Below are positions 30,478-50,110 of a stretch of DNA of 54,823 nucleotides, piece by piece. The translations under genes were made by a program, and so were the position numbers. The DNA comes from a bacterium (GTDB lineage: Bacteria > Planctomycetota > Planctomycetia > Planctomycetales > Planctomycetaceae): the NCBI GenBank assembly GCA_016124895.1, contig WGMU01000013.1, positions 1-54,823 on the forward strand, read 5' to 3'. Numbering within the stretch: the first letter of the stretch is position 1; each line of letters opens with the position of its first letter. The notes beneath the pieces were generated by a model. It did no database searches and had not been told where the DNA came from. It was given only the letters and a program-made list of their open reading frames with translations.

Positions 30478-30513
30478 GTAAATGACTCACTCGCTTGCGC
30501 TTCGTGCTTGTAT
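30444..30513. repeat. Perfect 26-bp inverted repeat, 18-nt loop
   Basis: The arm 30444-30469 (ATACAAGCACGAAGCG...) is exactly complementary to 30488-30513, formed by the second direct copy and the inverted third copy. As RNA on either strand it would fold into a long stable stem, which may end transcription or protect an mRNA end between the ATPase gene and the GspF-like genes. Confidence 0.85.
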
Positions 30514-30746
30514 GGCAACTGCAAGTGGCGCAGCCCAATTAGGAACGCGTCGGAAACAACTTCCCGATTTGCGATCAGCTTCATCAGCCGCAACGCGTTA
30601 GCGTCCGGTTCTCGTCCGGTCTGACAGAACCGTGGGCTAGCGCCCCGCGGCTGATTGCGGGAAGTCGTTTTGGACACGTTCCTTAATCCACTGATTTACC
30701 GGCTGAGCCTGTGGCACAGCAGAATTCACGATTGCTGGTCCGGGAA

Positions 30747-33268: not shown

Positions 33269-35998
33269 TCAGCGATCAAGTTTGTTTCTCAAACGATTCA
33301 ACTCTTCCAGCGCTGCCAGTGGTGTCATCTCTTCGATTTTCAGCTTGCGGATTTCGTCGAAGACCGGGTGCTCCTCGACGACGAACAGCGAAAGCTGCTT
33401 CTCTTTGGACTTCTTCGTCCGCTTTGGCACCTTCGGGCGGCCGTCCTCATCGAGGTGGTCGTTTTCAAGCGTCTGCAGGATGACTGATGCGCGGTCGACG
33501 ACGGACCGCGGGACGCCGGCCAGACGGGCGACGTGGATGCCGTAGCTCTTGTCTGCCGAGCCCTCGACGATCCGATGCAGAAAGATGATGCCGTCGCCCT
33601 GTTCATGCACGGCGACGTTCCAGTTCGACGCGTGCTTGAGCGTCGAGGTCAGTTCGGTCAGTTCGTGATAATGCGTCGCGAACAGCGTGCGAGCCTTGAT
33701 CGAATCGTGCAGAAATTCGGTGACGGCCCAGGCCAGCGAAATGCCGTCGTAGGTGCTCGTGCCGCGCCCAATCTCGTCAAGAATGACGACGCTGCGGTCG
33801 GTCGCCGTGTTGAGAATCCGCGCTGTCTCGGTCATCTCGACCATGAACGTACTCTGCCCTTTGCCGAGTTCGTCGCTGGCTCCGACGCGGGCGAAGACGC
33901 GGTCCGCGACGCCGATGCGAGCCTCGCTGGCCGGGACAAACGAGCCCATCTGAGCGAGAATCGTCAGCAGCGCCGCCTGCCGAATGTAGGTACTCTTACC
34001 GGCCATGTTCGGGCCGGTGATGATCTGCACGCGACCGTGGTGATCGCCACCCAGCAGCACGTCGTTGGGGACGAACTCGCCGGTCGGCTGCAGCTTGCCG
34101 AGCACCGGGTGCCGGCCCTCGCGGATATCAAGTACCGGGTCGGTCGTCATCTGTGGTCGACAGTAACCCTGAGCGGACGCCAGCACGGCCAGCGAGATCA
34201 GCACGTCAATCTCGGCGATCACTTCCGCCGAGTTCTTCAGCCGCGTGACGTGCTCGGCGACGCGGTCGCGCAGCGCGGTGAAGAGTTCCTGTTCGAGCAT
34301 CCTGGCTTCGTCCTCGGCCCGCAGCACCTTCTCTTCGTACTCCTTGAGTTCCGGCGTGATGAAGCGTTCCTGGTTCTTCAGTGTCTGTTTGCGGATGTAG
34401 TCGTCAGGGACTTTGTCCTTATGCGCGGCGGTCACTTCAAGGTAGTAGCCGAAGACCTTGTTGAACCCGACTTTCATGCTGGGGATGCCGGTCCGCTCGA
34501 TCTCCTGCGCCTGGTACTTCGCGATCCACTGCTTGCCGCCGCGGGCCAGTTCGCGCAGTTCGTCGAGCTGAGCGTTGTAGCCGTCGCGGATCATGCCGCC
34601 GTCGGTTGTGAGCAGCGGCGGATCGTCGGTCAGCGCGGTGTCGATGTCCGCTCGCACTTCCGGGCACAGATCGAGGTCGGCTTCCAGCGACTGAATCAGC
34701 CTCGCCTTCCGCCCCGACAGCTTCGCTTTGATCTTCGGCAGCAGAGCCAGCGTCCGAGCGAGGCAGCCGAGATCGCGCGGGTTGCAGCGAAGCGTCGCAA
34801 CTTTCGCCGTCAGTCGCTGCAGGTCATAGACTTTGCTGAGTTCCTCGCGGATGTCGCGGCACAGAATGACGTTCTGAGTGAACTCCTCGACCGCGTCGAG
34901 CCGCGCTTCGATGTCCGCAATCTCGGTCAGCGGATTGGACAGCCAGTCGGCCAGCAGCCGCGCGCCCATTGGCGAAACGGTTTCGTCGATCACGTCTAGG
35001 AGGCTGCCTTCGCGCTTGCCTTCGCGGAGCGTGCGCGTCAGTTCGAGACTCGCCCGCGTGGCTTCATCGATCGTCAGGTTTTTCCCGAGCCGCCAGGGTT
35101 CCAGACGGACGATGTGCGAGAGGGAACTCTTCTGCGTTTCCTGCACGTATTCGAGTAATGCACCGGCTGCGACGATGCCCGGCGCGTCCGCGTCGAGATC
35201 GAAGCCGTCGAGCGTTTTCATCTCGAAGTGCTGCAGCAGGTTCTTGCGGCAGGCGTCGACGGCAAAGCTCCACGGCGGGCGCTTGGTCACTGTCATTCCG
35301 CGCAGGCCCAGCTTCGGCAGCAGTTCGTCTGCACGTGCCGGGCTCTCGGAAACGAGCAACTCCGACGGCCGCAGGCGCGCGAGTTCATCCGCAAGCTGCT
35401 CCATCTCCAGATTGGATGTCTGGAACCGGCCGGTCGAAACGTCGAGCCAGGAGAGCCCGACCCCGTCCTTGCCGACGAAGACGCTGGCCAGGTAGTTGCT
35501 TTCGCGCGGGTCAAGCAGAGCTTCGTCGGTCAGCGTTCCCGGCGTGACGACCTGCGTCACCTCGCGGCGGACGAGCCCCGTGGCCTTTTTCGGATCCTCG
35601 ACCTGTTCGCAGATCGCCGCACGATGGCCGGAGCGGATCAGTTTGTGGAGGTAGTTCTCCAGCGCGTGATACGGAAACCCGGCCATCGGAATCGGGTTGT
35701 CGGTGTTCTTGTCGCGGCTGGTCAGCGTCAGTCCGAGCGCCTTCGCGGCGATGGCGGCGTCGTCGAAAAACAGTTCGTAGAAGTCGCCCATCCGGAACAG
35801 CAGGAGCGAGCCGGGGTTCTGGCTCTTGACCTCCATGTACCGTTCCATCATCGGCGTCAGTTTTGCCCCGCCGGACTTCCCCGCCGGGTTCTGGCGTGCG
35901 GCCTTCTTTTCCGTCGGATCGTTGTCCGCCGTCTCCGAAGCAGCCGCCGTCTGCAGAGCGTCCTCATCCGTATTCTGTTGATCCCGAGTCGCCGCCAT
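33269..35998 (-). CDS. mutS: DNA mismatch repair protein MutS
   Basis: A 909-residue MutS that recognises mismatches and recruits MutL. Domain I carries the mismatch-reading Phe-x-Glu in [10 protein letters not shown] (F73, E75). The clamp and lever domains follow, and the ATPase domain has Walker [10 protein letters not shown] (~661-669), [17 protein letters not shown], Walker [17 protein letters not shown] and the HTH-like end [19 protein letters not shown]. An N-terminal tail of ~45 polar residues precedes domain I and is longer than in most MutS proteins. A 58-nt piece of this gene (35474-35531) reappears in altered form at 40853-40910, inside the remnant described there. No mutL is in the window. 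Confidence 0.98.
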
Positions 35999-36687
35999 CT
36001 TGGCACGCGTTTCCTGATTGAGTGTCGAAGTCGATTCGCCAGGCTGGACGGCTCAAAAATGTTCCATCAGAGCCTCGCAGGGGTGGCATCGTCGTGCGCC
36101 GCGGTATCGATTTCCACTCAACGCAGAGCAACGGGCTCAACGCAGCATCGGCAGGCTTGAGCAGACCAGAACATCCTCTGACTATGCGCATACCCAAACG
36201 GTGAGGAGCGAATGCTCCAGGAAAACCCGCATCACAATCGCAGGCCCATCGGAACGTCACCCGGCCATCCTGCTCCTGTGTCGGTTCGGATGCCGTTCGC
36301 GGCCTTCTATTCAGTGCCCCGATCTCGTGAGCACGGGATGTGCCCGCAAGACCGGGTGTCACTCGCGACCGCTGACGGCGTACCTTAGTCTGGACTGACA
36401 GATCATTCAGAAACCCGCTGGCAAAAAGTTCTCAAGCCGGCTCCCGTTGGCGACCGCAGGTGCCTGACTCAAGTAACGGTCCCTGGTCGATGGGTGGCTC
36501 TGGACCGGTAAGTGGCCTGGCGTCCGGTGAAGTTGAACTTTCGGCTGTCCTGTCATGCCGACAGATTACGACGTCATTGCATCGATCAACGGGACGCTGT
36601 GTTCCGAGTGCGTGAATCAACCGGGTTCCTGTCCCTGACCGAAGCGAGCGAGTTACGCCCGATCCCACAGCAGCTCAGGAGTCCTGA
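35999..36687. other. 689-bp divergent intergenic region
   Basis: Between mutS (-) and the kinase gene (+). I see no convincing gene. The stretch around 36050-36130 (GCATCGTCGTGCG, then GATTTCCAC) has a loose counterpart at 40944-40978 in the remnant region and may be a degenerate dispersed repeat. The kinase ribosome binding site, CAGGAGTCCTGA before the ATG at 36688, is at the right end. No promoter boxes stand out. Confidence 0.5.
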
Positions 36688-39600
36688 ATGACCGCCGATT
36701 CGGACAGCACACACAATCTCGATCTGCTGACGATCGACAGAAGGATTGAGCCGGTATGCCAGCAGTTCGAACAGGCCTGGATCACAGAAACACCTCTCAG
36801 GATTGAAGAGTGTCTGAGTCAGGTGTCGGGACCGAAGGATCGCAAGCAACTTCTGCTGAGGCTGCTGAGACTTGAAATCAGTCTGCGCCGCAAAGCTGGC
36901 GAGTTTCCGGCCATCAATGCGTATGTCTCTCGTTTTCCAGAGGACGAAACCACAGTTCGAAGTGTTTTCGAGGAGGATGATCGTGCCGAGCTGTCTGCCA
37001 CGATCCTGTCTGTCCGCTGTCCACGTTGCATGAATGAATGCACGGGAGAACTGGCTTCGGAGACAAGGGAGATGACATGCGGTGCATGCCATCACACCTT
37101 TCGGCTGATCGGCATGCCTTTCGGCAGCCGGCTGATGCCGGGTGATCGCATTGCTCACTTTGAACTCAAGGAACTGTTGGGGCGCGGCTCATTTGCAAAT
37201 GTGTGGAAGGCGCACGACCGGAAGCTGAATCGTGATGTCGCAGTCAAAGTCCCCAGACGTGGTGAACTGACTCAGCAGGAGTCCGAAAAGTTCCTCCTTG
37301 ATGCGAGAACGACCGCGCAGTTGAAGCATCCAAACATCGTCAGCGTGCATGAGGCCGGTCGCTCTGGCGAGTCGGTCTACATCGTTACCGACCTGATCGA
37401 CGGTTTGACGCTGGCTGGTTGGCTGGCCGACCAGCGGCTGACACCACGTGACTCGGCGCAGCTCAGTCTGCAGATTGCCGAAGCACTGCATCACGCTCAT
37501 CAGCACGGCATCGTTCATCGGGATTTAAAACCCGGCAATGTCATGATCGATACCAGTGGCGTTCCTCACCTGATCGATTTTGGCCTGGCAATTCACCGCA
37601 GCGCCCACGTTGAAGCCACGATCACATACGAGGGCCGGCTTGTTGGCACACCAGCCTACATGGCTCCCGAGCAGGCCCGGGGTCAGGCATCATCAGCCGA
37701 TGCCCGATCCGATGTGTACTCACTGGGAGTGATTCTGTATGAGCTGCTGACAGGCGAGCGACCGTTCCGAGGCGAACTGGAGGCACTCCTGCAGCATGTC
37801 GCCCATGATGATCCGCCCGCTCCGTCATCGCTGCGCCCCGGCATCCCGCGTGACATTGAAACGATCTGCCTGAAGTGTCTCGAAAAGTGTCCGTCGGACA
37901 GGTACGCATCGGCGCGTCTGCTCGGAGACGACCTGCAAAGATTTCTGCGAGGTGAACCCGTCCTTGCGAGGCCGATTACCCGGATTCATCGCCTGGCGCG
38001 CTGGTGCCGCCGGAATTCAACACTTGCAGCACTCACTGGCTTACTGGTCGTCATCGTGCTGGGCCTGGCCGTTGGCGGACCACTGGTGGCTGTCCAGCAG
38101 GCGGAACTGGTCCAGAGTGAGGCTGCAGCTCACGCGAAGACACGCAGTGCTCAGCAGGCCGCCGAACGTGACCGTCGTGCTGCGAATCAGTCTCGGGGGG
38201 CAGCAGAACTGGCACAGAGCGCTGAAGCACGCGAACGATTGCGGGCCGAGCAGGAATGGGGCAGAGCGCAACACCAGGTTGCGCGATTACAGGTTGCTAA
38301 TGGCACGCGATTGCTCGACGCCGGTGACGCGTTTGGCGGTCTGGAATGGCTGCAGAAAGCATTTCTGACGGACGCGTCAGTCACCTCGCCGTCAGCCGAT
38401 CCGGGAGAACAGAAGCGTCGCGATTTCCTGGAAGCCGCGCATCGACAGCGACTGGCATTCGTTAGGGATGAACTTCCCAGGCTGATTCATATCTGGCAGC
38501 GCGACTCTCCAGACAGGGATGAGAACCATTTTCAATACATCGACTGCTGTCGCGAGAAGCGAACCGCAGCGTGGCACACTTATCAGGACAGCGTCTACCT
38601 GCTGGACCTTGAGACGGGAAAGGAACAGCGAATCGATCAGGACGTTGCTGTGATCAGTGTCGCCCTGAGTCCGGATGGCTCCCTGCTGGCGGTGAACACC
38701 AGAGATCAGCGAGTGCGACTCTGGAGCACCGTCACCGGGAAGAAGCTCGCCGAACTGCAACACTCAAGAAGCTGTAAGTTTGCCAGCTTTAATCAGGATG
38801 CGACGCGCCTACTGCTCGGAGGCGACTTCACTCGTGCCATCTGGAAACTGCCCCGAGACTTCGGGGACAATTCAACACTGACGATGGCAGCAGAGGTCTT
38901 CCATACTGACACCCGCCCGGGGTTTTCCGTGTGCTGTTTCAGCCCCGATGGTCGCCTGTTTTCTGGGGCCGAACTTCTGCCATCCGGACCGGCTGTCGTG
39001 ATTCGCAATTCCGAGTCAGGTTTGCCGGTCGGCCGACCTGTTAACCTTGAGCCGAGGTCGCGCGTCCGATGGTTAACCTTCAATCCAGATGGCACTCGAC
39101 TGCTGGCTGTAGCGGAAGGTGCTGAAGAGACCACTGTTTACCTGGCGGACGTCCCTTCCGGCAGCCTGTTGTTTCCACCGATCACTGGCCTGAAGAGAGT
39201 CAGCCGTGTCGAGTTTTCACCAGATGGCTCTCGCTTTCTGGTCACAATGGCCGATGGTGTCAGCATCAGGAATTCAGAAAATGGAAGTCCAGAGACTTCC
39301 GTGCTGCCGCATGGTGACGTGGTCTACCACGCGCGATTCAGCGTTTCAGGACGCTATGTCGCCACCGCGAGCCGCGATCACACAGTGGGTGTCTGGGACA
39401 CCAGTAACGGCCGAGCGGTCTGCCCGGCAATTCCCCATCCCGACAATGTCTGGGATGTGTGGTTTGTTGGAGACCGTGATAACCGGGTCGTGACCAGTTG
39501 CCGGGATGGAACTGTTCGTGTCTGGGAATGGCCCGCACGGCACGACGTTGTTGCCCTGAATGGGCATAAGACTGCTGTCCGTCATCTTCAATTCAGCAAT

Positions 39601-40683
39601 GAAGGGACAAAGCTGGTGACAGGCAGTGATGATGGGATCGTCTGCGTCTGGTCTCCCGAATCCAGTCAGAATCCTGTGTGTGCGATCGAACTGGGGGGTG
39701 AACCAGAGAACCTCGTGTTTCATCCAGACGGACATTCACTGCTGGCATCTGTTGATAAGCAGCAGGTCCGTATCTGGAAACTGGACAACAACGAGGCTGG
39801 CATATCAGGAAACCCGGAGATCGTCGGGCCACCCGTCGCATCGCTCGCTCGATTCAGTCCCGATGGCCGATGGGTGGCTCTGACCTCGAGAAACAGGGTT
39901 AGTGTGCTCGACGCGAATTCCGGCCTGCTACAGATATCACAGTTTCAGATGCGTCCCACCTTCGCGATTCGGGGGATCGACTTCAGTCCCAGTGGCGAGC
40001 GTCTGCTGACGATCGGCCAGGGCGTGCTGAGAGTCTGGGATGTGATCAGTGGCAAGCCACAAATGACACTGACGGCAACCGGATCGGTGAAATCTCACGG
40101 ATTCTTCAGCCCGGACGGAACGCGAATTTTCACTGCTGGACTGCAGGGCGGAAACTTCATGGTGGATGCCTCAGGGACGGATGCCCTTGCTCGGACAATC
40201 TGGAACGCGGCCACGCCGCAATTGCTGACGGCTGAGTTCTCAAGAGACGGCCGGCTGCTGCTGACGAGCCACGTCGACGGCACTTTTCTGTTGAGAGACG
40301 CCGAAACAGGCAGACTCATCCTGGAACCCGGACATCACACGGGTTTATCGTCAGCGCGGATCGCCCCGATGGGTGAACTGATCGTGACAGGGGGGAGTGA
40401 CGGGAATATTCGTGTCTGGAGCACCACGACGGGCGAACTGTTGTCTCCGCCGCTCAGACACGGCAGCGCCATTCACGATGTACACTTTCATCCAGACGGT
40501 CACAGGTTCGTCTCTGGATGCGATAATGGAACGGTCCGGATATGGAGCATTCCACTACCTCTGGCAGAACCGGTGGATGAATTACGGAAACAGGTTCAGC
40601 ATTTGAAGTCCACCCAAGTCAATTTACCACGCGCACTGAAATCGGTGATTCCAGTCGAATCAGGTGAATTTCCCGAGGAGTAA
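36688..40683 (+). CDS. Ser/Thr protein kinase with zinc ribbon and WD40 repeats
   Basis: A 1331-residue Hanks-type kinase. Residues ~1-105 are helical; a zinc ribbon follows with CX2C-X16-CX2C (C111, C114, C131, C134). The kinase domain (~155-430) is complete: LLGRGSFANVWKAHD, K187 in VAVKV, H277-R278-D279 in HRDLKPGN, D297 of the DFG motif, and GTPAYMAPEQARG. A membrane helix at ~446-470 (LTGLLVVIVLGLAVGGPLVAV) is followed by a charged coiled coil (~475-540). The remaining ~750 residues hold many WD40-like repeats (VRLWS, VGVWD, VRVWEW, VCVWS, IRVWS), a beta-propeller for protein partners. It is a membrane-bound sensor kinase whose WD40 part should lie outside. SD CAGGAG before the start. 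Confidence 0.96.
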   Translation: MTADSDSTHNLDLLTIDRRIEPVCQQFEQAWITETPLRIEECLSQVSGPKDRKQLLLRLLRLEISLRRKAGEFPAINAYVSRFPEDETTVRSVFEEDDRAELSATILSVRCPRCMNECTGELASETREMTCGACHHTFRLIGMPFGSRLMPGDRIAHFELKELLGRGSFANVWKAHDRKLNRDVAVKVPRRGELTQQESEKFLLDARTTAQLKHPNIVSVHEAGRSGESVYIVTDLIDGLTLAGWLADQRLTPRDSAQLSLQIAEALHHAHQHGIVHRDLKPGNVMIDTSGVPHLIDFGLAIHRSAHVEATITYEGRLVGTPAYMAPEQARGQASSADARSDVYSLGVILYELLTGERPFRGELEALLQHVAHDDPPAPSSLRPGIPRDIETICLKCLEKCPSDRYASARLLGDDLQRFLRGEPVLARPITRIHRLARWCRRNSTLAALTGLLVVIVLGLAVGGPLVAVQQAELVQSEAAAHAKTRSAQQAAERDRRAANQSRGAAELAQSAEARERLRAEQEWGRAQHQVARLQVANGTRLLDAGDAFGGLEWLQKAFLTDASVTSPSADPGEQKRRDFLEAAHRQRLAFVRDELPRLIHIWQRDSPDRDENHFQYIDCCREKRTAAWHTYQDSVYLLDLETGKEQRIDQDVAVISVALSPDGSLLAVNTRDQRVRLWSTVTGKKLAELQHSRSCKFASFNQDATRLLLGGDFTRAIWKLPRDFGDNSTLTMAAEVFHTDTRPGFSVCCFSPDGRLFSGAELLPSGPAVVIRNSESGLPVGRPVNLEPRSRVRWLTFNPDGTRLLAVAEGAEETTVYLADVPSGSLLFPPITGLKRVSRVEFSPDGSRFLVTMADGVSIRNSENGSPETSVLPHGDVVYHARFSVSGRYVATASRDHTVGVWDTSNGRAVCPAIPHPDNVWDVWFVGDRDNRVVTSCRDGTVRVWEWPARHDVVALNGHKTAVRHLQFSNEGTKLVTGSDDGIVCVWSPESSQNPVCAIELGGEPENLVFHPDGHSLLASVDKQQVRIWKLDNNEAGISGNPEIVGPPVASLARFSPDGRWVALTSRNRVSVLDANSGLLQISQFQMRPTFAIRGIDFSPSGERLLTIGQGVLRVWDVISGKPQMTLTATGSVKSHGFFSPDGTRIFTAGLQGGNFMVDASGTDALARTIWNAATPQLLTAEFSRDGRLLLTSHVDGTFLLRDAETGRLILEPGHHTGLSSARIAPMGELIVTGGSDGNIRVWSTTTGELLSPPLRHGSAIHDVHFHPDGHRFVSGCDNGTVRIWSIPLPLAEPVDELRKQVQHLKSTQVNLPRALKSVIPVESGEFPEE

Positions 40684-41032
40684 TACGGTCGCGGCTGAAG
40701 ACAATTCCCAGGGAGTGACCGCTGATTCGGGCCAGACAGCGGATCGTCAGTCAACTGTGCTGTGTCGAACCGGCGATCCGCGGTTTTCATTCAGCATCAA
40801 TGCGTTTCTGCCAGAGTTTGCGAATTTGTTTCAGGCGGCGTTCGATGGTGCGGACGAAGACGCTGGCCAGGCAATTGCTTTCCCGCGGATCAAGCAGGGC
40901 TTCGTCAGTCTGATCCCGCGTAAGCTTTCCGGCGACACTGTCGCGGTATCGTCGTGCGGAATGGCCTGAAATTCCACCCAGAATGATGCCATCAACGTCC
41001 CGACTGCACAGCAATCCTTCGTCTGATTACAT
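40684..41032. other. 349-bp region between convergent genes
   Basis: It contains a possible stem (40739-40746 with 40774-40781, GCGGATCG/CGATCCGC, 27-nt loop) downstream of the kinase gene and the MutS/sigma remnant (40787-41014). No complete gene is visible. Confidence 0.6.
40787..41014 (-). pseudogene. Chimeric remnant: MutS fragment joined to ECF sigma C-terminus
   Basis: On the - strand a 75-codon open frame encodes [19 protein letters not shown], nearly the MutS sequence [19 protein letters not shown], directly followed by RTIERRLKQIRKLWQKRIDA, the end of the sigma factor encoded at 50111-51130 (one residue different). At DNA level 40786-40856 matches 50110-50180 at 70 of 71 bases including the stop codon, and 40853-40910 matches 35474-35531 in mutS at about 52 of 58 bases. 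The two parts overlap by GACG, a microhomology. The upstream ~33 residues (DGIILGGISGHSARRYRDSVAG) have no relative that I recognise. There is no ATG (TTG start) and the frame lacks all functional domains, so I call it a remnant, not a gene. Confidence 0.8.
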
Positions 41033-42646
41033 TCAATGGAGCGGCTGCCTTTTCTCAAACCTGAGTCGGTAAATCTGCGTCTGCTCGATCGCCCAGTGCC
41101 GTTCAATAACCCAGTCAGGGGAGGATCCGAGATATTCAGAGATCGCTGGGTTGATTGACCGTTCTTTCTGACGATTCCAGAAAACCTCGTTAGCCCCTTC
41201 AGGGATAGATTCTTCATCGATCCAGTAGCACAGACCGGTGGATCGCCATTCGAAACCGCTTCCGACACCTCCAGCGACAAAATGCTGCAGATACTCGTAG
41301 GCAGGGTACCAGCCGGAATAGGGACCAGTGATCTGGATGACATTCGGCCCGGCGTCCTGCATAATCGAATTCAACACCGTCTGCCGCTGAGCCAGGCTGA
41401 ACTCGCAGGCTGCTCCCGGAGACTGCTGGCCAGAATTCATCAGCTTCAGGCACGCAGCCAGAAACGAGATATTTCCAGCGATGAGGATGACAACAACCGC
41501 AACCATGGCAGGCCGCCAGCGTGAAGTTGCTGCGCGGCGAAGGTTGTCTGCAGCAAGTGCCACAAGGATTAGCCCGAACGGCTGAGTGACCAGCATTCCG
41601 TCTGGCGAGCCGGTGTTTCGCAGCAACGTGCTCAGAATCAACGCGAGGCCAATCCACAATGCCACAAGTCGCGAAGAACGGAAGTCTGAGCTTGAGCCTG
41701 CGGCTGCCTGGATCACAGCTCCCACAAACAAGGCAGTCAGCAGCAGCGAGCCGGCAGACGTGGACACGATCAGCCAGCCGGGAAAGTCTTCGGGCCAGGT
41801 CGATAGATCATTACCGAACCAGAACTCGAATCCAGAGCAGCACAGCATCTGCAGGAGAGTCGTCAGTGCCTGCAGAAACGCCTCAGCATGGGCTGCGGGA
41901 GAATCGAGAATCTGCCTGGCCCATGCGGACAACTCGACCCAGCCTGTAATTTGCTGAAACTTCAGCCACGGGAGCCAGGCGGCCAGGCCGATCGATGCAC
42001 CAGCGACAAGCGGCGTGACTGTCAAGTGCCGGCGGCCAGCGAACAGAACCGCGGTAACCCAGGGAAGAGCACACAATCCGGAAAAATGAATCTGTGGCAC
42101 GACCAGACCAAGCAGTACCAGCAGACCGAGCTGGTGCTTCCTGTGTTCATCCAGCCAGCGCAACGAAAAATCGACGAGCAGAATACAGAAGAGAGCCAGA
42201 CAACTCGCAGGCACCAGTAGCCGGGAATAGAGCACTGCCCAGGGCGACGAGGCGTAAAGCAGTGTGGCGGTCATTGCCGGGAAGAACCCGAAGTGCCTGA
42301 GACACAACCGAAACAGCAGCCAGACTGACAGCAGATTCAGAACGATGACCGGCGTCAGCAGAGCGATGGGATTCCAGCAGAACATGCCGACAAGTGCCGA
42401 CAGAGAAATCAGAAAGGCCGAACTGCGGACGTCTTCTGTCAGAGGCCCGGCCAGAGCCCAGTCCCGGCCATTCAGCAGACGAAGAGTGCTGAGCGCGTTC
42501 AGCCCCTGAATCCCGACGACATTTGAAATGCTGATCAGATCGAGCCGGTACAGGCGCAGAAAGGCTGCCAGGAGCAGAATACTCCCCAGGAGCCATCGGG
42601 AGCCCGCTTCAGCTCTCGAGATCTCATGTGGCGTCGACTGATCCAC
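41033..42646 (-). CDS. Polytopic membrane protein, GT39/GT-C-like
   Basis: A 537-residue integral membrane protein with about eleven helices (LLGSILLLAAFLRLYRLDLIS, LLTPVIVLNLLSVWLLFRL, LGLLVLLGLVVPQIHFSGL and others). The long first loop (VVGIQGLNALSTLRLLNGRDWALAGPLTED) and the helix spacing resemble family 39 dolichol-phosphate-mannose-type glycosyltransferases and related GT-C proteins, but the usual DE/ExD pair after the first helix is not obvious, so activity is uncertain. The soluble C-terminus (~420-537) has a short beta-rich domain. It is the last gene of an operon that begins at 49924; the MBL gene ends 29 bp upstream. Confidence 0.7.
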   Translation of the reverse strand: MDQSTPHEISRAEAGSRWLLGSILLLAAFLRLYRLDLISISNVVGIQGLNALSTLRLLNGRDWALAGPLTEDVRSSAFLISLSALVGMFCWNPIALLTPVIVLNLLSVWLLFRLCLRHFGFFPAMTATLLYASSPWAVLYSRLLVPASCLALFCILLVDFSLRWLDEHRKHQLGLLVLLGLVVPQIHFSGLCALPWVTAVLFAGRRHLTVTPLVAGASIGLAAWLPWLKFQQITGWVELSAWARQILDSPAAHAEAFLQALTTLLQMLCCSGFEFWFGNDLSTWPEDFPGWLIVSTSAGSLLLTALFVGAVIQAAAGSSSDFRSSRLVALWIGLALILSTLLRNTGSPDGMLVTQPFGLILVALAADNLRRAATSRWRPAMVAVVVILIAGNISFLAACLKLMNSGQQSPGAACEFSLAQRQTVLNSIMQDAGPNVIQITGPYSGWYPAYEYLQHFVAGGVGSGFEWRSTGLCYWIDEESIPEGANEVFWNRQKERSINPAISEYLGSSPDWVIERHWAIEQTQIYRLRFEKRQPLH

Positions 42647-42675
42647 CGCTTCCCTGTCTCAAATATAATTCGTTA

Positions 42676-44265
42676 TCAGTAGCCATAGCCCAGCGACATG
42701 CGGCTTTGATTCAGAGTGTCTGTCCAGTCGCGACCGTAGAGATTGGCATTCTGTCCGTGGTTTGGCCGAGCCGGCAACCAGATCTGTGGCCGCGTACCAG
42801 CCAGCCGATGCAGCGAGCGAAGTCCCTCAGGCAGATCAAGGGGCGTCAGGTACCAGTCATTGGCCGGATCAGATGGAACCAGTAGCGGAGCGAGGCCGGA
42901 AAACAGGATGCGTTTTCCCTCTCGATTCAGCAGCCAGGCCGATCTCTCAGAGCCAAAGCCGAGAACCGGGATTCGCTCCAGATTCAACCAGGCAAGCTGT
43001 TCCGGCAGGTCTTCGGATAAAGTGAATGCCGCATTCGCGCAGAGCCGTTCAACGTCGGCTCTAGCCGATTCCGCAGCGATGATTCGGCAGCCGGTCGCAT
43101 TGACCACTGACGAAAGGCCAGCGACGAGGGTCGGAGTTGTCCCGGTCAGAATCACGGCGTCGAGCATGGGTAGCTCCCGGCCGAACATCTTCAAATGCTC
43201 GGACAGGAAATCGACAAGCTTTGCTCCACCGGGGGCGTCTACCAGAATCAGCGCTGCATCATCCGACAGACAGTAGACCGCTGTCTGATTCAGATCGCCG
43301 AGATAGAACAGCCCCGTTGCAATCTGTTTCGGGATACCGTCAAGAAAGTCCGCGCCGTCAGTTTCGAATCGGGCAACCAGTTGTTCCATCTGCTCAATCC
43401 CGCGACTGAGCGTCGCTGACCACCATTCCGGCGACACACGGGCGTTGACCATTCGCCGTTGTGTTTCAGGGTGCCCCGGCAGCAGCAGGTCCGGTGCGGG
43501 CAGATGCTGCAGATCCCTCAAAGTCTGCAGGTAGGCCTGGGCATCGCCTCGGAACTCTGGAGCGAGATATGCCGAATACGTTCCCAGGTCGCCATCGATC
43601 GTCATGATCGTGTCACCGCTGAAGAGCACCGTTTTTCCTGCCCAATCGACGAGATAGCAGGTACTGCCTGGTGTATGTCCCGGCGTTGCCAGCACCTGAA
43701 TCACCGCTTCACCCAGCTCGATCGTCTCGCTCCCGGATAACTCGACATCGACAACCGTCGGTTCGATCGGCACGTTGTCCATTGGGAACGTCGAAAAAAC
43801 GGCCTCTCGTGGTCCGGCATTGCGGAGCACAGCGCTGTCCCCGGCACCAGCGTAGATTTTTGCTCCGGTTAACTCGCGAAGCTGCATGGCTCCGAGATAG
43901 TGATCGCCATGCCCATGTGTGATCAGGATCATCTTCAGGTCGGCAACATTCAGATGGAGGGCCTGCATCTGCTTCAGAAGCAGTTCGTGTGACTGGCGAA
44001 GACCGCAGTCGACGAGGATCAGCCCGTCGCTCGTTTCCAGAACGTAGGCAACCGATGGCGACAGGGCTCCCAGCACGTGCAGACCGGGAGCGAACGTCTG
44101 AGGTCCTGGAACGAAGATGGCCGGCTTCTCTGGTTGTTCAGCGGGAACTGAGTCGGGGATTTCTTCGTTGATCAGCGTGACTACGAGAACGCAGATCAGC
44201 GACGCAACTGTCATGCTGACGAGAATCAGTTTTCGGCCAAACCTGTCGTGTCTCGTCAGACGCAT
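42676..44265 (-). CDS. Membrane-anchored MBL-fold hydrolase with degenerate second lobe
   Basis: A 529-residue protein with an N-terminal membrane anchor (LILVSMTVASLICVLVVTLI). Residues ~60-280 are a metallo-beta-lactamase fold domain: LILVDCG, the metal motif HGHGDH in ILITHGHGDHYLG, GHTPGSTCYLV and LFSGDTI, and LLPGHPE. Residues ~310-520 repeat the fold (ALILVDAPGGAKLVDFLSEH, AVILTGTTPTLVAG, RIIAAESARADV) but the H-x-H-x-D-H motif has become TGTTPTLVAG, so this lobe cannot bind metal in the usual way. Such proteins include glyoxalase II-like and related hydrolases; the substrate is unknown. The ATG overlaps the end of the ABC ATPase gene by 10 bp, so translation is coupled. Confidence 0.82.
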   Translation of the reverse strand: MRLTRHDRFGRKLILVSMTVASLICVLVVTLINEEIPDSVPAEQPEKPAIFVPGPQTFAPGLHVLGALSPSVAYVLETSDGLILVDCGLRQSHELLLKQMQALHLNVADLKMILITHGHGDHYLGAMQLRELTGAKIYAGAGDSAVLRNAGPREAVFSTFPMDNVPIEPTVVDVELSGSETIELGEAVIQVLATPGHTPGSTCYLVDWAGKTVLFSGDTIMTIDGDLGTYSAYLAPEFRGDAQAYLQTLRDLQHLPAPDLLLPGHPETQRRMVNARVSPEWWSATLSRGIEQMEQLVARFETDGADFLDGIPKQIATGLFYLGDLNQTAVYCLSDDAALILVDAPGGAKLVDFLSEHLKMFGRELPMLDAVILTGTTPTLVAGLSSVVNATGCRIIAAESARADVERLCANAAFTLSEDLPEQLAWLNLERIPVLGFGSERSAWLLNREGKRILFSGLAPLLVPSDPANDWYLTPLDLPEGLRSLHRLAGTRPQIWLPARPNHGQNANLYGRDWTDTLNQSRMSLGYGY

Positions 44266-44921
44266 TTCAATTGCCCTGCACGCATCTCGAAAACCTGCGT
44301 CCCCAGAGCGATCAGTCTCGGGTCGTGTGTCGAAAAAACGAGAGTAACGCCATCGGTGTGGATTTCGCGAAAGATCTCGATCAACCGCTCTGCCGCCCGC
44401 GTATCCAGATTGGAGGTAGGCTCGTCGGCGAGCAGAATCCGGGGTGACGCGACAAGTGCCCGCGCCACAGCAACTCGTTGCTGCTCGCCACCGCTGAGCT
44501 GTTCGGGACGGCTTTCGGACTTTCGCCGAAGCCCCACTCGTTCCAGCATCTGACCGGCAAGATCAAATCGACGAGCCTGTGGAACCCCCAGCGGAATCAG
44601 CGGCCAGGTCACGTTTTCCCACGCCGGAAGACGCGGCAACAGCGAAAACGACTGAAATACAAATCCGATGTGCCGTCGAATCCGCGCAAGTTCGACTCCA
44701 GAGCAGTTGTTGACATCGCGGCCGAGGATGTGGACTGCGCCGCTCGTCGGACGCGAGAGGGCTCCGAGAATTGAAAGCAGACTCGTCTTGCCGGAACCGG
44801 ATTCCCCAGTCAGGACAACAATCTGCTGACTGAAGATCGAGAGTGAGACGTTATCGACGGCAGTCACAACTTCGGTTCCATCCCCACGAAACTGCTTTGT
44901 CACACCAATGGCCTCAATCAT
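44256..44921 (-). CDS. ABC transporter ATPase, LolD/MacB type
   Basis: A 221-residue ATP-binding protein of the MacB/LolD/FtsE family, which works with FtsX-type permeases rather than classical transporters. Walker A GESGSGKTSLLSI, Q-loop FVFQSFSLLPRLPAWENV, signature LSGGEQQRVAVARAL and Walker B ILLADEPTSNLD are intact, with the H-loop in VFSTHDPRLIAL. Its partner is the permease gene just upstream; the two overlap by ATGA, so they are translated together. The MBL gene begins before its stop codon. In proteobacteria relatives extract lipoproteins from the inner membrane or move peptides and toxins. Substrate here is unknown. Confidence 0.93.
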   Translation of the reverse strand: MIEAIGVTKQFRGDGTEVVTAVDNVSLSIFSQQIVVLTGESGSGKTSLLSILGALSRPTSGAVHILGRDVNNCSGVELARIRRHIGFVFQSFSLLPRLPAWENVTWPLIPLGVPQARRFDLAGQMLERVGLRRKSESRPEQLSGGEQQRVAVARALVASPRILLADEPTSNLDTRAAERLIEIFREIHTDGVTLVFSTHDPRLIALGTQVFEMRAGQLKCV

Positions 44922-46108
44922 CGCATTGCCTCATCAGGCGGAACGATGGCGTACTGCCAGGAAGTATAAAGAGAACCACTCAACGTAATCGACAGGGCGA
45001 CGACGAAAGCCACCATCGCAGGAACAGGCAACAGTCGGAACGGCACGGGGAATCCGGGAAATACATCAACTCCGGAAATAAAAAAGCCGACGATTCCAGC
45101 ACCGTCCAGTACACGCAGCCAGAGGAAAGCGATCGCGATACTGGTCGCAGCAGCCGTCACGCTGATCAGAAGACACTCAACAAATGCTTTCAGCAGAACT
45201 TCGTCAGTCTGCCAGCCGGTTGCTTTCAGAATACCGATTTCTCGACGGCGTTCAGTCTGTCCGTACCCCGAAGTGACCAGAATGACGAGCAGCCCGCAGA
45301 CGAATGCCACGACAAACTGCAGAGTAAAGATTCCCAGCTTCTGAAACCGATCGCTCAGGATCTGTTCCGACAGGGATTCGCGGCTTCTCACGTTCAGTTG
45401 CGTCAACGTGTCTCTCGCAGCGGAGTCACGAACGGTCCGCTGAATTTCTACACGGACAGACTCACTGTAGCCCTGTCTGCAATACACTACGAAGTCTGTG
45501 ACTGAATCGGGTTGAGCGAAGATTCGTTGCGCAGATTCAACCGTCGTGAGCATCATCTGTGACTGCCAGAATGGAATCCGCGACTCAAACATGCCAACGA
45601 TGACAGAGGTCCGTTCACCCTCAGGGTTACGGTAGAATGGGGGTAACTGCGATCCGATTGTCACTTTCAGATGCTTGGCTAGTGCCGTGCCGACTACCAG
45701 TTCGTGTTGTGCCGCATTGCCGGGTAACCGTCCGGAGACGCACCGAACAGCATCCGGAAACGCCGCTTCGGGAAGACCAACGATGACGGCGGCAACGTGA
45801 TCGCGGCCGATCTTCGTTAGCCCGATGATTCTCGGTACGACGCCGAGCACTCCGTCGATCGTCATCAGCTCTTCGGCCATGCTGGCTGGCAGCGGGCTGC
45901 TCTGTCCGAAGCGACTGCCGCTGACATACAGATCGCCCCCCGAGTTGATGGCGGCAGATTCTTCCAGCCGCAGGCCATCAGAGATGCCAATTCCAACCAG
46001 AAACGGCACCAGCATGACGAGCAGAACGGTGAACGTGGCAACGCTTCGCACCGGATCGATCAGAACAGAAGTCTGGCCAGCTCGAAAGATCTCAACGAAA
46101 CGTCGCAT
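44918..46108 (-). CDS. ABC transporter permease, FtsX/MacB type
   Basis: A 396-residue permease with the MacB topology: one helix near the N-terminus (TFTVLLVMLVPFLVGIGISDGL), a large periplasmic domain (~50-265) and three C-terminal helices (LQFVVAFVCGLLVILVTSGYGQT, VECLLISVTAAATSIAIAFLWL, PVPAMVAFVVALSITLSGSLYTS). The FtsX loop ERRREIGILKATGW is present. It is the membrane partner of the following ATPase. The ATG at 46108 follows AAGG with 5-nt spacing; an ATG at 46132 is equally possible. The N-terminus overlaps the small protein gene in another frame by 17 bp. Confidence 0.9.
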   Translation of the reverse strand: MRRFVEIFRAGQTSVLIDPVRSVATFTVLLVMLVPFLVGIGISDGLRLEESAAINSGGDLYVSGSRFGQSSPLPASMAEELMTIDGVLGVVPRIIGLTKIGRDHVAAVIVGLPEAAFPDAVRCVSGRLPGNAAQHELVVGTALAKHLKVTIGSQLPPFYRNPEGERTSVIVGMFESRIPFWQSQMMLTTVESAQRIFAQPDSVTDFVVYCRQGYSESVRVEIQRTVRDSAARDTLTQLNVRSRESLSEQILSDRFQKLGIFTLQFVVAFVCGLLVILVTSGYGQTERRREIGILKATGWQTDEVLLKAFVECLLISVTAAATSIAIAFLWLRVLDGAGIVGFFISGVDVFPGFPVPFRLLPVPAMVAFVVALSITLSGSLYTSWQYAIVPPDEAMR

Positions 46109-46502
46109 CACGACCTTGTCCTTGAGATTCATCCTCTGCTCCAACTGCAGACGCCTGACACAGCAGAGCACCGTCTCCACGACGAGCGGAAGCGTGAAGC
46201 ACTTGCGCCGCAGGTAGAGGACGCGATGACGCCGTTAGAACGTTCCAGGTACCTGAAGTCAGAAACGCAGACGGAGTGACGCTGGGACCAAAACTGATTC
46301 CGTTCAGCAGTGCCTGGAACTCACTTCGCCGGGAATTCCGCCCAACGTCCAATTGAGCGTCGACTGCCACAACGGTCACCACAGCCAGGACCAGACCGGC
46401 CATGCTCACTGTCGGCAACCAGTGCGTAAACGCAGTTCGTAATTCCAGCCCACGGCCATCGGATGGTGAGCCGTTTCTGATCATCGAATCATCGACGTCC
46501 AT
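46092..46502 (-). CDS. Small protein with one membrane helix, hypothetical
   Basis: A 136-residue product that I do not recognise. It starts with ATG ATG (46505/46502) inside the end of the ASPIC/UnbV gene, 11-14 bp before that stop codon, a form of overlap typical for co-translated genes. It has a single hydrophobic segment (WLPTVSMAGLVLAVVTVVAVDA, ~29-50) and a polar, possibly disordered, C-terminus. The position in the operon, directly before the FtsX-type permease, suggests a bitopic partner of the transporter. The C-terminal ~60 residues look less protein-like, so a shorter product or a spurious frame cannot be excluded. Confidence 0.5.
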   Translation of the reverse strand: MDVDDSMIRNGSPSDGRGLELRTAFTHWLPTVSMAGLVLAVVTVVAVDAQLDVGRNSRRSEFQALLNGISFGPSVTPSAFLTSGTWNVLTASSRPLPAAQVLHASARRGDGALLCQASAVGAEDESQGQGRDATFR

Positions 46503-48369
46503 CATCTGACCCGCCCTCTGGTTCAGCAATCTCCAGAAGCTGATTGATTCCGGGAGTGCTGATTGACTGCCGACGGCCACCTGGCCACTGGATTTCCACG
46601 AGGTCAATCCGGTCAGCAGTGCCAAGTCCGAAATGCAGCACCTTAGAGGATTGCGACAGATAGCCACTGGCTCCCTGCAGCAGACGAACCTGGCGCCGAC
46701 CGCCGCCGGTCACCGTTACAACGGCGCCGATCGCGTCGCGATTGCAGGAAGTTCCCCTTAGCCGCAGAGCGAAGTAGTTCCGCGGTGGAAACTCGTTGTG
46801 GAAATAGTACGGTCGGTGATTGAAATTGTTCGTCAGGATGTCAACACGGCCGTCGCCATCGAAGTCTGCTGTTGCCGCACAGCGCGAACTGCGGACGGCA
46901 TAGCGATCCTGAATACGGTCTTCCAGGTAAATTCCTTCCGCAGGAGGTTCGATTCCACGGGTCTCAGCCTGATCCAGAAAAGTCCCGTTTCCCTGATTCA
47001 TCAAAAGCGAATTCGGCCAGTAATAAAACGGGTAGCCCATGCCGGCGGCGATGAACACGTCTTCGTGCTGATCGTTATCGAAGTCACCCGTGGCGACTCC
47101 CCAGGGCCAGAAGGTTTCCAGGCCAGCTTCGGCAGTGGCCTCTTCAAATTTCCCGTTGCCCAGATTCCTGTACAGCACGTTTCCGAACAGAACGCCGTCG
47201 TGTCGGAAATCGAGAACCCCTTCAAGATCCCTCTCCATCATCATGAGTTCCGCGTTCGACTCCGTCACCGGTCCGTAGAAGTACGGGAATTTGCTGGCCT
47301 GATGTTTTCGGGCTGTCTGCAGCGAGGTGTGGTTGTAGTCGAGGCCCATCCACATATCTGAGTGCATATCGACGACGAACAGGTCCAGCGTTCCGTTACT
47401 GTCGAAATCAAAGACGCGGCACCCGATGGCGCCGAATGACGTTTTGCCAAGGACTGTCGCGGTCACGTCCTCGAAACGCCCACTACCGAGGTTTCGGTAA
47501 AGCTGATCCGGACCGAACATGTTTGAGATAAAAACGTCCTGAGCGCCGTCCTGATCATAGTCAAAAACCGCGACGTCACTGGCCCATCCGCGTCCCTTCA
47601 GTCCCGAGTCTTCCGTGACGTCAGTGAAGGTGCCGTCACGGTTGTTGTGATAGAGAATGTTGGGCTCAATGCTGGAGCCGACAACTTCGTTCAGACCTCC
47701 GATCAGCCCTTTGCCAACGAAATATTGAGATCCCCCGTCGTAGGCCTCACTGGTCCAGTTCGCCGTGTTAACAACCAGCAGGTCGAGGAAACCATCATTG
47801 TCACAGTCAAAAAAGGCCGCTGTCTGTGAGTGGCCGACGAATTCAACTCCCGCTTCGGCCGTCGCGTCGTCGAACGTTCCGTTTCCGCGATTTCGAAACA
47901 GAGTGTTTCCGCCCCGCGTACTGGTGACATAGAGATCCTGATCACCGTCGTTGTCATAGTCGGAAAAGGTGGCTCCGACACTGACCCGGTCCGCAAGAGC
48001 GACTCCCGCTGTCTGGGTCACGTCGCGGAATGTGCCGTCACCTCGGTTCTGGAACAGAGCATTCGCGCCAAGCTGATTCAGAAAGTACACGTCGTCATGA
48101 CCATCTCCGTTAATGTCTCCAATAGCCACGCCACAACCGTGATCGTAGAGGTTGATCTTGAAGGTCTCGCCCTGTTCTGCCGGCAGGAATCCCATCTGAA
48201 ATGTAATCCCGGACTCGGCCGAGAGATCCCGAAACCCAGGTTGCTGAGCGTCGGTTCGTCGGGGATCCTTGCTGTCGGCAGGCCGAAACAGAACAAACGC
48301 GGCCGCGACGACAGCCAGCAGGCCTAGCGTCCATGTCAGTCTGTGTGAGTTTGACTGGAACGCTGCCAT
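46489..48369 (-). CDS. FG-GAP/VCBS repeat protein with ASPIC/UnbV domain
   Basis: A 626-residue exported or membrane-anchored protein (signal-like LTWTLGLLAVVAAAFVLF at ~12-30). It has at least six FG-GAP/VCBS blades with calcium-binding DxDxDG motifs (GDINGDGHDDVYF, SDYDNDGDQDLYV, FDCDNDGFLDLL, FDYDQDGAQDVF, GDFDNDQHEDVF, ADFDGDGRVDIL), each followed by NxGxGTF, and a C-terminal ASPIC/UnbV domain (AIGAVVTVTGGGRRQVRLLQ, LHFGLGTADRIDLVEIQWPGG). Such integrin-like propellers bind Ca2+ and other proteins or carbohydrates outside the cell. The ATG forms TAATG with the stop of the NosL-like gene, so translation is coupled; AAGG lies 9 nt upstream. Confidence 0.93.
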   Translation of the reverse strand: MAAFQSNSHRLTWTLGLLAVVAAAFVLFRPADSKDPRRTDAQQPGFRDLSAESGITFQMGFLPAEQGETFKINLYDHGCGVAIGDINGDGHDDVYFLNQLGANALFQNRGDGTFRDVTQTAGVALADRVSVGATFSDYDNDGDQDLYVTSTRGGNTLFRNRGNGTFDDATAEAGVEFVGHSQTAAFFDCDNDGFLDLLVVNTANWTSEAYDGGSQYFVGKGLIGGLNEVVGSSIEPNILYHNNRDGTFTDVTEDSGLKGRGWASDVAVFDYDQDGAQDVFISNMFGPDQLYRNLGSGRFEDVTATVLGKTSFGAIGCRVFDFDSNGTLDLFVVDMHSDMWMGLDYNHTSLQTARKHQASKFPYFYGPVTESNAELMMMERDLEGVLDFRHDGVLFGNVLYRNLGNGKFEEATAEAGLETFWPWGVATGDFDNDQHEDVFIAAGMGYPFYYWPNSLLMNQGNGTFLDQAETRGIEPPAEGIYLEDRIQDRYAVRSSRCAATADFDGDGRVDILTNNFNHRPYYFHNEFPPRNYFALRLRGTSCNRDAIGAVVTVTGGGRRQVRLLQGASGYLSQSSKVLHFGLGTADRIDLVEIQWPGGRRQSISTPGINQLLEIAEPEGGSDDGRR

Positions 48370-48842
48370 TAAGGACACACCTTGTCCGTTAAGCCGCTTG
48401 CAGACGCCAACGGCGAATCCGTTACCGAAACAACGCGGGCACGAGCGGCGTCTGCGTGCCTGAGAGCGTCAGCGGACGTCCGAAACGTGTGCCAGCGGTT
48501 TCCAGTAATTGCGTTGGTTGGGACAGTACTCCGGACAAAAAATGCCTGCACAGCGTTAACTTCGATTCCGCTCGATTCGTCAGTTACATAAATATGCGAA
48601 ACAGCCGCTGCTGACCGGTCGATCCAAGCCGCGGCACAGAGCACGCAACAGAATGAATACGAGACGTCAGGTGACGTAGCGACCCGAACACGGAAAACAG
48701 AGTCGACGGGAAGTCCGTCCCAGTGGCAGCGTGCAGGATTCTTACCTCGAACCGTGTGCCCAATCAATGGCAAGACCGCAGCAACGAACAGAGTCACGGC
48801 GGCAGTCAGCCACAGGTGTCTGTGAATCATTCGAGTCGCCAT
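48369..48842 (-). CDS. NosL-like membrane-anchored Cys protein
   Basis: A 157-residue protein with an N-terminal membrane anchor (LWLTAAVTLFVAAVLPLIGHTV). The body looks like NosL, the copper-binding helper of nitrous oxide reductase: IYVTDESSGIEVNAVQAFFV corresponds to the NosL strand preceding its ligand region, and RWHTFRTSADALRHADA to the C-terminal half. Possible metal ligands are C39-H40 (ARCHWDG), the pair C65-C66 and C69 in FCCVLC. NosL delivers Cu(I); here no nitrous oxide reductase gene is present, so a related metal or redox role is inference. The gene begins the coupled cluster with the ASPIC/UnbV gene and follows the membrane protein at 48878 by 35 bp. Confidence 0.62.
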   Translation of the reverse strand: MATRMIHRHLWLTAAVTLFVAAVLPLIGHTVRGKNPARCHWDGLPVDSVFRVRVATSPDVSYSFCCVLCAAAWIDRSAAAVSHIYVTDESSGIEVNAVQAFFVRSTVPTNAITGNRWHTFRTSADALRHADAARARVVSVTDSPLASASGLTDKVCP

Positions 48843-48877
48843 CTGAAACCCATTGAGACATTCTCTGCGTTACGGTG

Positions 48878-49924
48878 TCAGCAGAGCATCAGTTCGACCG
48901 AGATCAGGACCAGCGACGCGGAATAGCTGACCAGACTCAGGAACAGCAGTTGAGTAACGAACGTCGGCAGAATTTCGTGAGTCTGGGAACAAACACCCAG
49001 CCGGGATACAAGAAATGCCCATCCGATGCTGAACGCTCCGGCCATTGACGCGATGACGGCCAGCAGACTTTCCGGCGCTGCAGTTACCAGATCGTACGGG
49101 CACTGATGGAACGGCAGTCCCAGAATCTCCGGTGCGGCAACGTCACGTAAAAACAGTCCGCCAACTGGCAGTGACGAGATTGCGGCAAACAACAGTATCC
49201 AGCCAGGAACTCCTGACAGCACCAGGCTGGAATCTGAATCAGGCTTCCTGATCGCACAGGCGAAGAGCACTGCGATCAGGCCACCATTCAACGCGTAGTA
49301 CGACCAGGCAACCAGAGGCCGCAAGCTCTGCGGAACTGCAGCCTCGGGCGTAAGCAGTTTCTGCCGTTCCAGCGCTTCCAGGGGAGTCGTGCAGCATCCT
49401 CCGGAGATTCGTGTTTCGGTACGAGGAATGCTGACGTAGCTCAGTTCAACCGAGGCATCCACAACCGTGATCACGCCGATGATGAGGAAAAAGGTCAGGA
49501 CGCGACGAAGCAGCGGCGATGTCGCTGTTTGTCGATCAACCAGATGCATGACGAATCCTGCGCCACTCGCAAACACGAGAAGCGGCCGCAGGAACTGAAG
49601 AATGTCCAGCAGGCCAGGCAGAAGCCGACTCAGACCGATTGATCCTTTTCCGATTTGCGTGACCCCGTAAATGCACATGACGGAGGGCCATTGCTGCACA
49701 TAGCTTTGCAGCAGCACATACAGAAGTGGCCACGAGACTGCATTCAGCACGACGACTGCTAACGCAAGAGCGATCACCAGCGCAACACGGTATTCGGCTG
49801 CGTCGGCGCTGACGTCTGCCTTTCCGCAGATTCGCCGGCCGGAGACGCTGACAAGTCCAATCCCCAGAATGATGCGAAGCCCGCTCAGAAAGGCCGCCAG
49901 CGTCGTATAGCCGTTAAGGAACAT
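48878..49924 (-). CDS. Polytopic membrane protein with conserved-looking Cys/His sites
   Basis: A 348-residue membrane protein with about eight helices that I do not recognise as a named family. Notable are polar sites next to membranes: C84 in MCIYGVTQIGKGS, C177-C178 in SGGCCTTPLEAL, H273-Q-C275-P in PFHQCPYDLV, C312 and the C-terminal C348. The CPYDL and CxYG motifs near the membrane, together with the adjacent NosL-like gene, suggest metal or haem handling, but this is inference. It is the first gene of the - strand operon that runs to 41033. A start ATG at 49924 gives a hydrophobic N-terminus; the upstream 186 bp separate it from the sigma gene stop and may hold its promoter. Confidence 0.7.
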   Translation of the reverse strand: MFLNGYTTLAAFLSGLRIILGIGLVSVSGRRICGKADVSADAAEYRVALVIALALAVVVLNAVSWPLLYVLLQSYVQQWPSVMCIYGVTQIGKGSIGLSRLLPGLLDILQFLRPLLVFASGAGFVMHLVDRQTATSPLLRRVLTFFLIIGVITVVDASVELSYVSIPRTETRISGGCCTTPLEALERQKLLTPEAAVPQSLRPLVAWSYYALNGGLIAVLFACAIRKPDSDSSLVLSGVPGWILLFAAISSLPVGGLFLRDVAAPEILGLPFHQCPYDLVTAAPESLLAVIASMAGAFSIGWAFLVSRLGVCSQTHEILPTFVTQLLFLSLVSYSASLVLISVELMLC

Positions 49925-50110
49925 GCCAGATGGTTTCGGTTGTTCTGCGCAGAACCGACTGGTTGCACTCTGTCATCTGCCGCTGAAAACGATGCGCCCG
50001 TCGGGTGTGGCGAATGACGTTACTCTAACGGCAGCAGTTCAAAAAAAGCGAGAACCGGCAGTCTTGCTGTGGAGACTGTTTTCAATTCGCAATGTGCCCC
50101 AATCACAGAT

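What the first reader, a model, noticed from the sequence alone, without database searches (positions are those of the whole stretch)
40787..41014. MutS piece fused to an ECF sigma C-terminus, both parents in this window
Seen: 40786-40856 equals 50110-50180 at 70/71 bases, to the stop codon; 40853-40910 equals 35474-35531 in mutS at about 52/58 bases; the junction shares GACG. The open frame runs across the junction. Inference: a microhomology-joined duplication, or gene conversion, has built a small chimeric frame. The different divergence of the halves suggests the sigma part was copied or converted more recently. If many copies exist in the genome it is a repeat family that carries gene ends.
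Basis: seen in the sequence. Interest (0 to 1): 0.78.

Follow-up and report, generated by a model that had tools for sequence, protein, structure and literature searches.

The report
Insertion scar made of gene scraps
A short stretch stitched together from pieces of two neighbouring genes is real, but it is most likely leftover DNA from a rearrangement, probably the insertion of a foreign gene cluster, and not a new gene.

Summary
Window 40786-40856 matches 50110-50180 (ECF sigma 3' end with its stop) at 70/71; 40849-40910 matches mutS 35470-35531 at 55/62. The pieces share GACG at the join. Only these three places match well in the 8.1-Mb genome, so there is no repeat family; the fusion was not found elsewhere. 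The interval between the two parents, 36020-50109, has unusually low GC, and its genes have a patchy distribution in relatives. Its larger part, 41033-49924, is a seven-gene set that recurs together elsewhere. The sigma copies are 71-bp direct repeats flanking exactly that set; the mutS scrap lies just inside the left repeat. Best reading: the left scar of an illegitimate insertion at the sigma 3' end. Rivals: local templated insertion, resolved tandem duplication, attachment-site island, translated small gene. Open: the mutS scrap is more diverged (6/58 against 1/71), and 5 of its 6 changes are silent, which leaves room for a foreign mutS allele or for translation. No promoter match, homolog or second fusion supports a gene. 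No genome showing the state before the event was found.

The parts
40786..40856 (-). Displaced copy of the 3' end of the FHA-ECF sigma gene, including its stop codon (left copy of a 71-bp direct repeat)
   Evidence: 70/71 to 50110-50180; boundary bases
40853..40910 (-). mutS-derived scrap (MutS residues 157-175), 52/58; the blastn match is 55/62 from 40849
40853..40856 (.). GACG shared by both source sequences at the join
50110..50180 (-). Source copy of the repeat: 3' end of the FHA-ECF sigma gene (right copy of the direct repeat)
50111..51175 (-). Sigma factor gene, FHA domain plus Sigma70_ECF
   Evidence: Pfam FHA 4e-10, Sigma70_ECF 7.2e-37
35470..35531 (-). Source of the scrap inside mutS
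33269..35998 (-). mutS, 909 aa, uninterrupted frame
   Evidence: G001 match 93% identical over residues 1-846; ORF
40911..50109 (.). Proposed inserted segment: 122 bp, seven minus-strand genes (41033-49924), 185 bp; bracketed by the 71-bp repeats, with the mutS scrap at its left end
   Evidence: gene set recurs elsewhere; GC 0.569, below all 368 sampled windows of 9.2 kb
36020..50109 (.). Low-GC interval between mutS and sigma; G001 homology stops 21 nt upstream of the mutS start
36688..40683 (+). Protein kinase with WD40 repeats, left neighbour of the scar
   Evidence: Pfam Pkinase 1.4e-49, WD40 2.4e-55
40736..40784 (+). Imperfect inverted repeat ending at the scar; possible kinase terminator, weak
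   Evidence: fold z -1.54, 11 of 200 shuffles fold as well; the consensus scan found no terminator
40787..41014 (-). Open frame across the join (75 codons from a TTG); probably not a gene
   Evidence: frame; no homologous fusion

Best explanation
The chimera is the left-hand junction scar of an illegitimate insertion. A horizontally mobile seven-gene set (about 40911-50109) entered next to the 3' end of an FHA-ECF sigma gene. The event duplicated the last 71 bp of sigma: one copy still ends the gene at 50110-50180, the other was left displaced at 40786-40856. At the left joint about 54-58 bp of mutS sequence was stitched in as filler, with GACG shared at the join. The open frame across the join is a by-product. 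Shown: the two copies, their boundaries, the shared GACG, the bracketing of the gene set, the unusual GC and the patchy distribution. Inferred: that insertion and scar were one event, the order of steps, and the insertion mechanism.
For: Both homologies are significant, and no extension of either was significant. The sigma copies are direct repeats enclosing exactly 41033-49924 plus short margins. That segment is a gene set on its own: of eight fetched regions, G010 and G077 carry 7 of 7 genes, G217 and G277 5, G381, G345 and G241 4, and G317 3 at a contig end, none with a full-length kinase match. GC over 36020-50109 is 0.573, below all 344 windows of 14 kb from 800 kb of the same genome; 4-mer composition is at percentile 95-98 for 36-48 kb and 85 for 48-52 kb. 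Kinase match at E 1e-150: only the own genome of 40 (15 candidates scored per genome). 41033-42646: own plus 2 of 61. DNA 38500-42600: in five relatives nothing but the mutS and sigma pieces. G001 mutS homology ends 21 nt upstream of the start, with a different gene next to it. GACG at the join. Fusion not found in other genomes.
Against: No recombinase or transposase was recognised in the 33 window proteins scanned against Pfam, so the mechanism is unproven. The kinase part is also low in GC (only 2.6% of 384 windows are as low) and may have arrived together with the gene set, in which case the scar formed later. The mutS scrap is more diverged than the sigma copy (6/58 against 1/71, p 0.045; 7/62, p 0.025), which one event followed by neutral drift does not predict well, and 5 of its 6 changes are silent in the MutS frame (p 0.004-0.015). 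The genus-mate G001 is fragmented and 84% complete, so absence there may be a gap. No genome with an empty site was found. [quoted passage not shown]
Confidence: 0.5

Rival explanations
1. Local templated insertion: during break repair or at a stalled fork between the kinase and the gene set, synthesis switched to sigma, then to mutS and back, inserting about 125 bp copied from templates within 10 kb. Independent of the arrival of the gene set.
For: Both templates are nearby and on the same strand, with GACG shared at the join; an exact 9-base repeat TCGTCAGTC lies at 40744 and at the end of the scrap, 40902.
Against: It leaves unexplained why the sigma piece begins one base beyond the sigma stop, at the edge of the gene set. 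TCGTCAGTC also occurs at 45201 and 53835, so the repeat may be chance.
Confidence: 0.2
2. Relic of a tandem duplication of about 14.7 kb (35474-50180). The order sigma end, then mutS interior, is the join that such a duplication makes. The two copies then lost complementary parts, leaving the join as a fossil between the kinase and the gene set.
For: Order and orientation are those of a duplication join, with GACG shared, and the scar lies between its two sources.
Against: It needs a duplication plus two deletions whose inner ends meet in one short intergenic space. The flanks of the scar show no significant remnant of mutS or of the sigma 3' flank, and no further copy was found in the genome.
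Confidence: 0.18
3. Site-specific integration: the sigma 3' end is an attachment site and the 71-bp repeats are the two halves of an integrated island.
For: 71-bp direct repeats, one of them ending a gene and reaching its stop codon, flank a low-GC gene set.
Against: No recombinase recognised in the scanned proteins; in the stretches fetched from G001, G007, G032 and G027 the sigma end has no second copy; it does not explain the mutS scrap.
Confidence: 0.05
4. A translated small chimeric protein kept by selection.
For: Both source frames stay in phase up to the sigma stop; 5 of 6 changes in the mutS part are silent, p 0.004-0.015.
Against: No homolog of the fusion; no sigma-70-type promoter match in 40600-41200 (that consensus may not suit this organism); the single change in the sigma part alters the protein, E to K; one of the silent sites lies in the 9-base repeat and may belong to the flank.
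Confidence: 0.05

Closest known systems
[quoted passage not shown]
   Same: DNA pieces joined with relaxed identity needs; I saw one passage that names both and cites Harms 2016 and de Vries 2002 (PMC7192050). That SPDIR uses microhomology and intragenomic pieces is recalled.
   Different: Here two pieces of 54-71 bp lie in a row beside a 9-kb gene set; transformation was not tested, and the same passage calls these processes insignificant in nature.
Templated or filler-DNA insertions (MMBIR/FoSTeS type)
   Same: Nearby templates copied into a junction with microhomology (recalled; I saw only the search listing).
   Different: A bacterial setting; replication-based copying is not shown here.
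Tandem-duplication join points with short homologies in enteric bacteria
   Same: The order of the pieces is that of a duplication join (recalled; the search listed one paper, not read).
   Different: No duplicated arms remain.
Genomic islands at gene 3' ends with flanking direct repeats
   Same: A displaced 3' end and an intact 3' end flank low-GC genes (family recalled; search listing only).
   Different: No integrase recognised, and a mutS scrap is present.

Membership tests
Illegitimate-recombination insertion scar | Pieces derived from elsewhere with sharp ends | tested here: met
   no significant extension
Illegitimate-recombination insertion scar | Short shared sequence at the join | tested here: met
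   GACG, 4 bp; 4 bp alone is weak evidence
Illegitimate-recombination insertion scar | A relative showing the empty site | tested here: inconclusive
   The genus-mate G001 has another gene order and is fragmented
Integrase-type genomic island | Direct repeats flanking the island, one in a gene 3' end | tested here: met
Integrase-type genomic island | Site-specific recombinase gene | tested here: not met
   None recognised among 33 window proteins scanned against Pfam; action in trans not tested
   Three places in the genome, two of them the parents
Functional chimeric gene | Homologs of the fusion in other genomes | tested here: not met
   170 genomes of the order incl. own: no other fusion; genome contigs: none
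Functional chimeric gene | Expression | not testable with these tools
   No RNA or protein data

The most novel reading that the evidence does not exclude
The mutS scrap is not a copy of the resident mutS but of a sister species' functional mutS allele that came in with the gene set. The scar would then be a two-source record, local sigma plus foreign mutS, of one transfer event. Alternatively the in-phase fusion was kept because it is translated.
Probability: 0.15. Interest if true: 0.5.

Novelty: new member of a known kind. Interest (0 to 1): 0.27.

Why it matters
It is a readable fossil of a rearrangement whose templates can still be named, next to a low-GC gene set that has no recognised integrase, and a caution that small in-phase chimeric frames can be junction debris. 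The kind of event is known; this adds an example.

Tried and rejected
Longer mutS homology upstream of the scrap: a local score of 34 was reached by 10 of 500 shuffles, but 22% of 7984 genome windows score as high; an anchored alignment (14% of shuffles), a protein alignment (34% of shuffles) and the flank against the whole mutS region (14.5% of 524 windows) were not significant either. Rejected. Extension of the sigma copy past its stop: 85% of windows score as high; rejected. Weak DNA hits across the join: three hits of 31-42 bp at 82-87% (G053, G016, G027) overlap the join; their loci hold no match to MutS or to the sigma protein; taken as chance. A 58-residue hit of the fusion frame in G079 lies antisense to a 491-aa frame; taken as chance. 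A-only mutagenic copying: the six changes are C>T three times, T>C, C>G and A>G; rejected. Repeat family: rejected. Known structured RNA: no Rfam match up to E 0.1 in 36000-50500. Assembly artefact: not excluded by reads; but the pieces are not exact copies of their parents, as an assembly chimera would be (inference). Ancestral adjacency of mutS and sigma: in G001, G007, G032 and G027 they lie on different contigs, so it was neither shown nor excluded.

Full report
What was checked. Both are on the same strand. GACG at 40853-40856 belongs to both matches. On the minus strand the frame reads from unrelated sequence through ...[19 protein letters not shown] (MutS) into RTIERRLKQIRKLWQKRIDAE and the sigma stop. 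In the whole genome (8.13 Mb, 195 contigs; the window is all of contig C75) only these three places match well (E 1e-176, 1.3e-28, 8.1e-16; next 0.053).

What the parents are. 50111-51175 encodes an FHA-domain ECF sigma factor. 33269-35998 is mutS, 909 aa, uninterrupted; its best match outside the own genome is 93% identical over residues 1-846, in G001, the only genus-mate that the searches listed.

Surroundings. The stretch between the parents stands out. GC is 0.573 over 36020-50109, below every one of 344 windows of 14 kb (step 2 kb) from eight other contigs; 0.569 over 40911-50109, below 368 of 368 windows of 9.2 kb; and 0.581 over the kinase part, where 2.6% of 384 windows of 4.7 kb are as low. 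Third-position GC is 0.56-0.65 for the eight genes tabulated between 36688 and 49924, against 0.68-0.81 for the seven others tabulated. In G001 the DNA homology stops 21 nt upstream of the mutS start, and the gene next to mutS is a homolog of window 15319-17190. G001 sigma is followed by other genes, part of which lie on contig C195 in our genome. DNA 38500-42600 has no match at E 1e-5 in G001, G007, G032, G027 or G011 other than the mutS and sigma pieces. A kinase match at E 1e-150 was found in 1 of 40 genomes, the own one, with 15 candidates scored per genome. A match to 41033-42646 was found in 3 of 61, own included. An FtsX-permease (44918-46180) match at E 1e-40 was found in 31 of 392 genomes of the phylum, own included, with at most 4 candidates scored per genome; the other 30 are labelled 'same phylum' only. 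G010 and G077, of the same family, do carry this permease at 42% identity; I cannot see whether they were in its sample. G001 is 84% complete in 1210 contigs, so absence there is weak evidence.

The right-hand part is a gene set. I fetched eight regions around such hits and compared 35 window proteins with them at E 1e-6. G010 and G077 carry all seven genes of 41033-49924, in other orders; G217 and G277 five; G381, G345 and G241 four; G317 three at a contig end. No full-length kinase match lies there: a 27% WD40 match in G010 and a 34% kinase-domain match in G277. By Pfam the set holds a mannosyltransferase-like protein (PMT_2, just under its cutoff), a metallo-beta-lactamase-fold protein, an ABC ATPase, an FtsX-type permease and an FG-GAP/UnbV protein; 48369-48842 and 48878-49924 have no Pfam family. 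That 48369-48842 looks NosL-like is recalled only.

Reading. The two sigma-end copies are direct repeats that enclose this gene set, its short margins and the mutS scrap. An insertion at the sigma 3' end, with duplication of 71 bp and a filler at the left joint, would leave just that. The displaced copy lies beside the kinase 3' region; the functional copy still ends sigma. No extension of either homology is significant: 22% of genome windows score as high against the upstream flank, 14.5% of larger windows when the whole mutS region is used, and 85% for the flank beyond the displaced stop. I hold this reading at 0.5, with a local templated insertion (0.2) and a resolved tandem duplication (0.18) as close rivals. 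All three make the frame a by-product. The data do not decide whether the kinase and the gene set arrived together.

Age and selection. At the six mutS differences G001 has the resident mutS state each time (my reading of the rows), so the changes lie on the scrap's side. Over 66 bases, eight of them outside the scrap, G001 differs from mutS at 6 and from the chimera at 16. Of the 29 other mutS rows (59 of 61 genomes, own included, had a match; 30 loci were returned), six distant ones (L063, L074, L075, L077, L081, L087) are as near or nearer to the chimera. Five of the six changes are silent: p 0.004 to 0.015 for transition weights 1 to 6. The halves differ in divergence: p 0.045 for 6/58, 0.025 for 7/62. 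These are small numbers, tested after the fact. One silent site lies in the 9-base repeat TCGTCAGTC (40744 and 40902; also 45201 and 53835) and may be flank. They are the only evidence that points past plain debris, to a foreign mutS allele or to translation.

Other genomes. By DNA, 13 of 59 genomes (own included) have a match at E 0.01. Most are the mutS or sigma gene or short stretches elsewhere; three weak hits of 31-42 bp overlap the join, in loci without MutS or sigma homology. By protein, 22 of 170 genomes of the order (own included) have a match at E 0.01; outside the own chimera they cover the mutS part or the sigma part only, except one chance hit in G079. Peptide patterns and a degenerate junction pattern found no fusion in genome contigs, a collection that may leave out the window's own genome. 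In an 855-kb sample of the same genome, 47 pairs of at least 40 bp and 85% identity include two dispersed families, tandem or near repeats, and several 43-77 bp pairs at 85-93% that I did not examine. None outside the families is as similar as the sigma pair; some are comparable to the mutS pair.

Literature. Seven answered searches, of which I saw listings and starts of abstracts. I read passages only of PMC8116780 and PMC7192050. PMC7192050 names HFIR and SPDIR as processes with relaxed identity needs, and says that they are supposed to be insignificant in natural populations. None of the listings I saw describes this scar; the searches were general and did not name the organism, whose name was not established.

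Noticed in passing
window 30400-30550 (partial second copy 30338-30396): A dispersed ~140-bp element with a very long near-perfect hairpin (-82.7 kcal/mol, z -8.9): 81 matches over both strands in this genome, 40 near-full-length places among the 40 of 74 candidates scored, and weaker, mostly central copies in G001, G007 and G011 (4 of 21 genomes, own included). Rfam: six matches up to E 1, all below gathering scores. Looks like a MITE- or REP-like family.
   Followed up: partly
G000 contigs C187:71495-71575, C187:88141-88233, C34:83697-83776, C34:81851-81891, C50:163146-163202: A second dispersed short repeat family, 41-81 bp, 89-98% identical, seen in the 855-kb sample.
   Followed up: no
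window 15319-36020: In G001 the homolog of 15319-17190 lies head-to-head beside mutS; here the two are about 16 kb apart on the same strand, suggesting an inversion or other rearrangement ending at the left edge of the low-GC interval.
   Followed up: partly
window 41033-49924: Seven-gene set (ABC/FtsX transporter, FG-GAP/UnbV protein, beta-lactamase-fold protein, mannosyltransferase-like protein, two proteins without Pfam family) recurring in same-family and same-phylum genomes with shuffled order; function unknown.
   Followed up: partly
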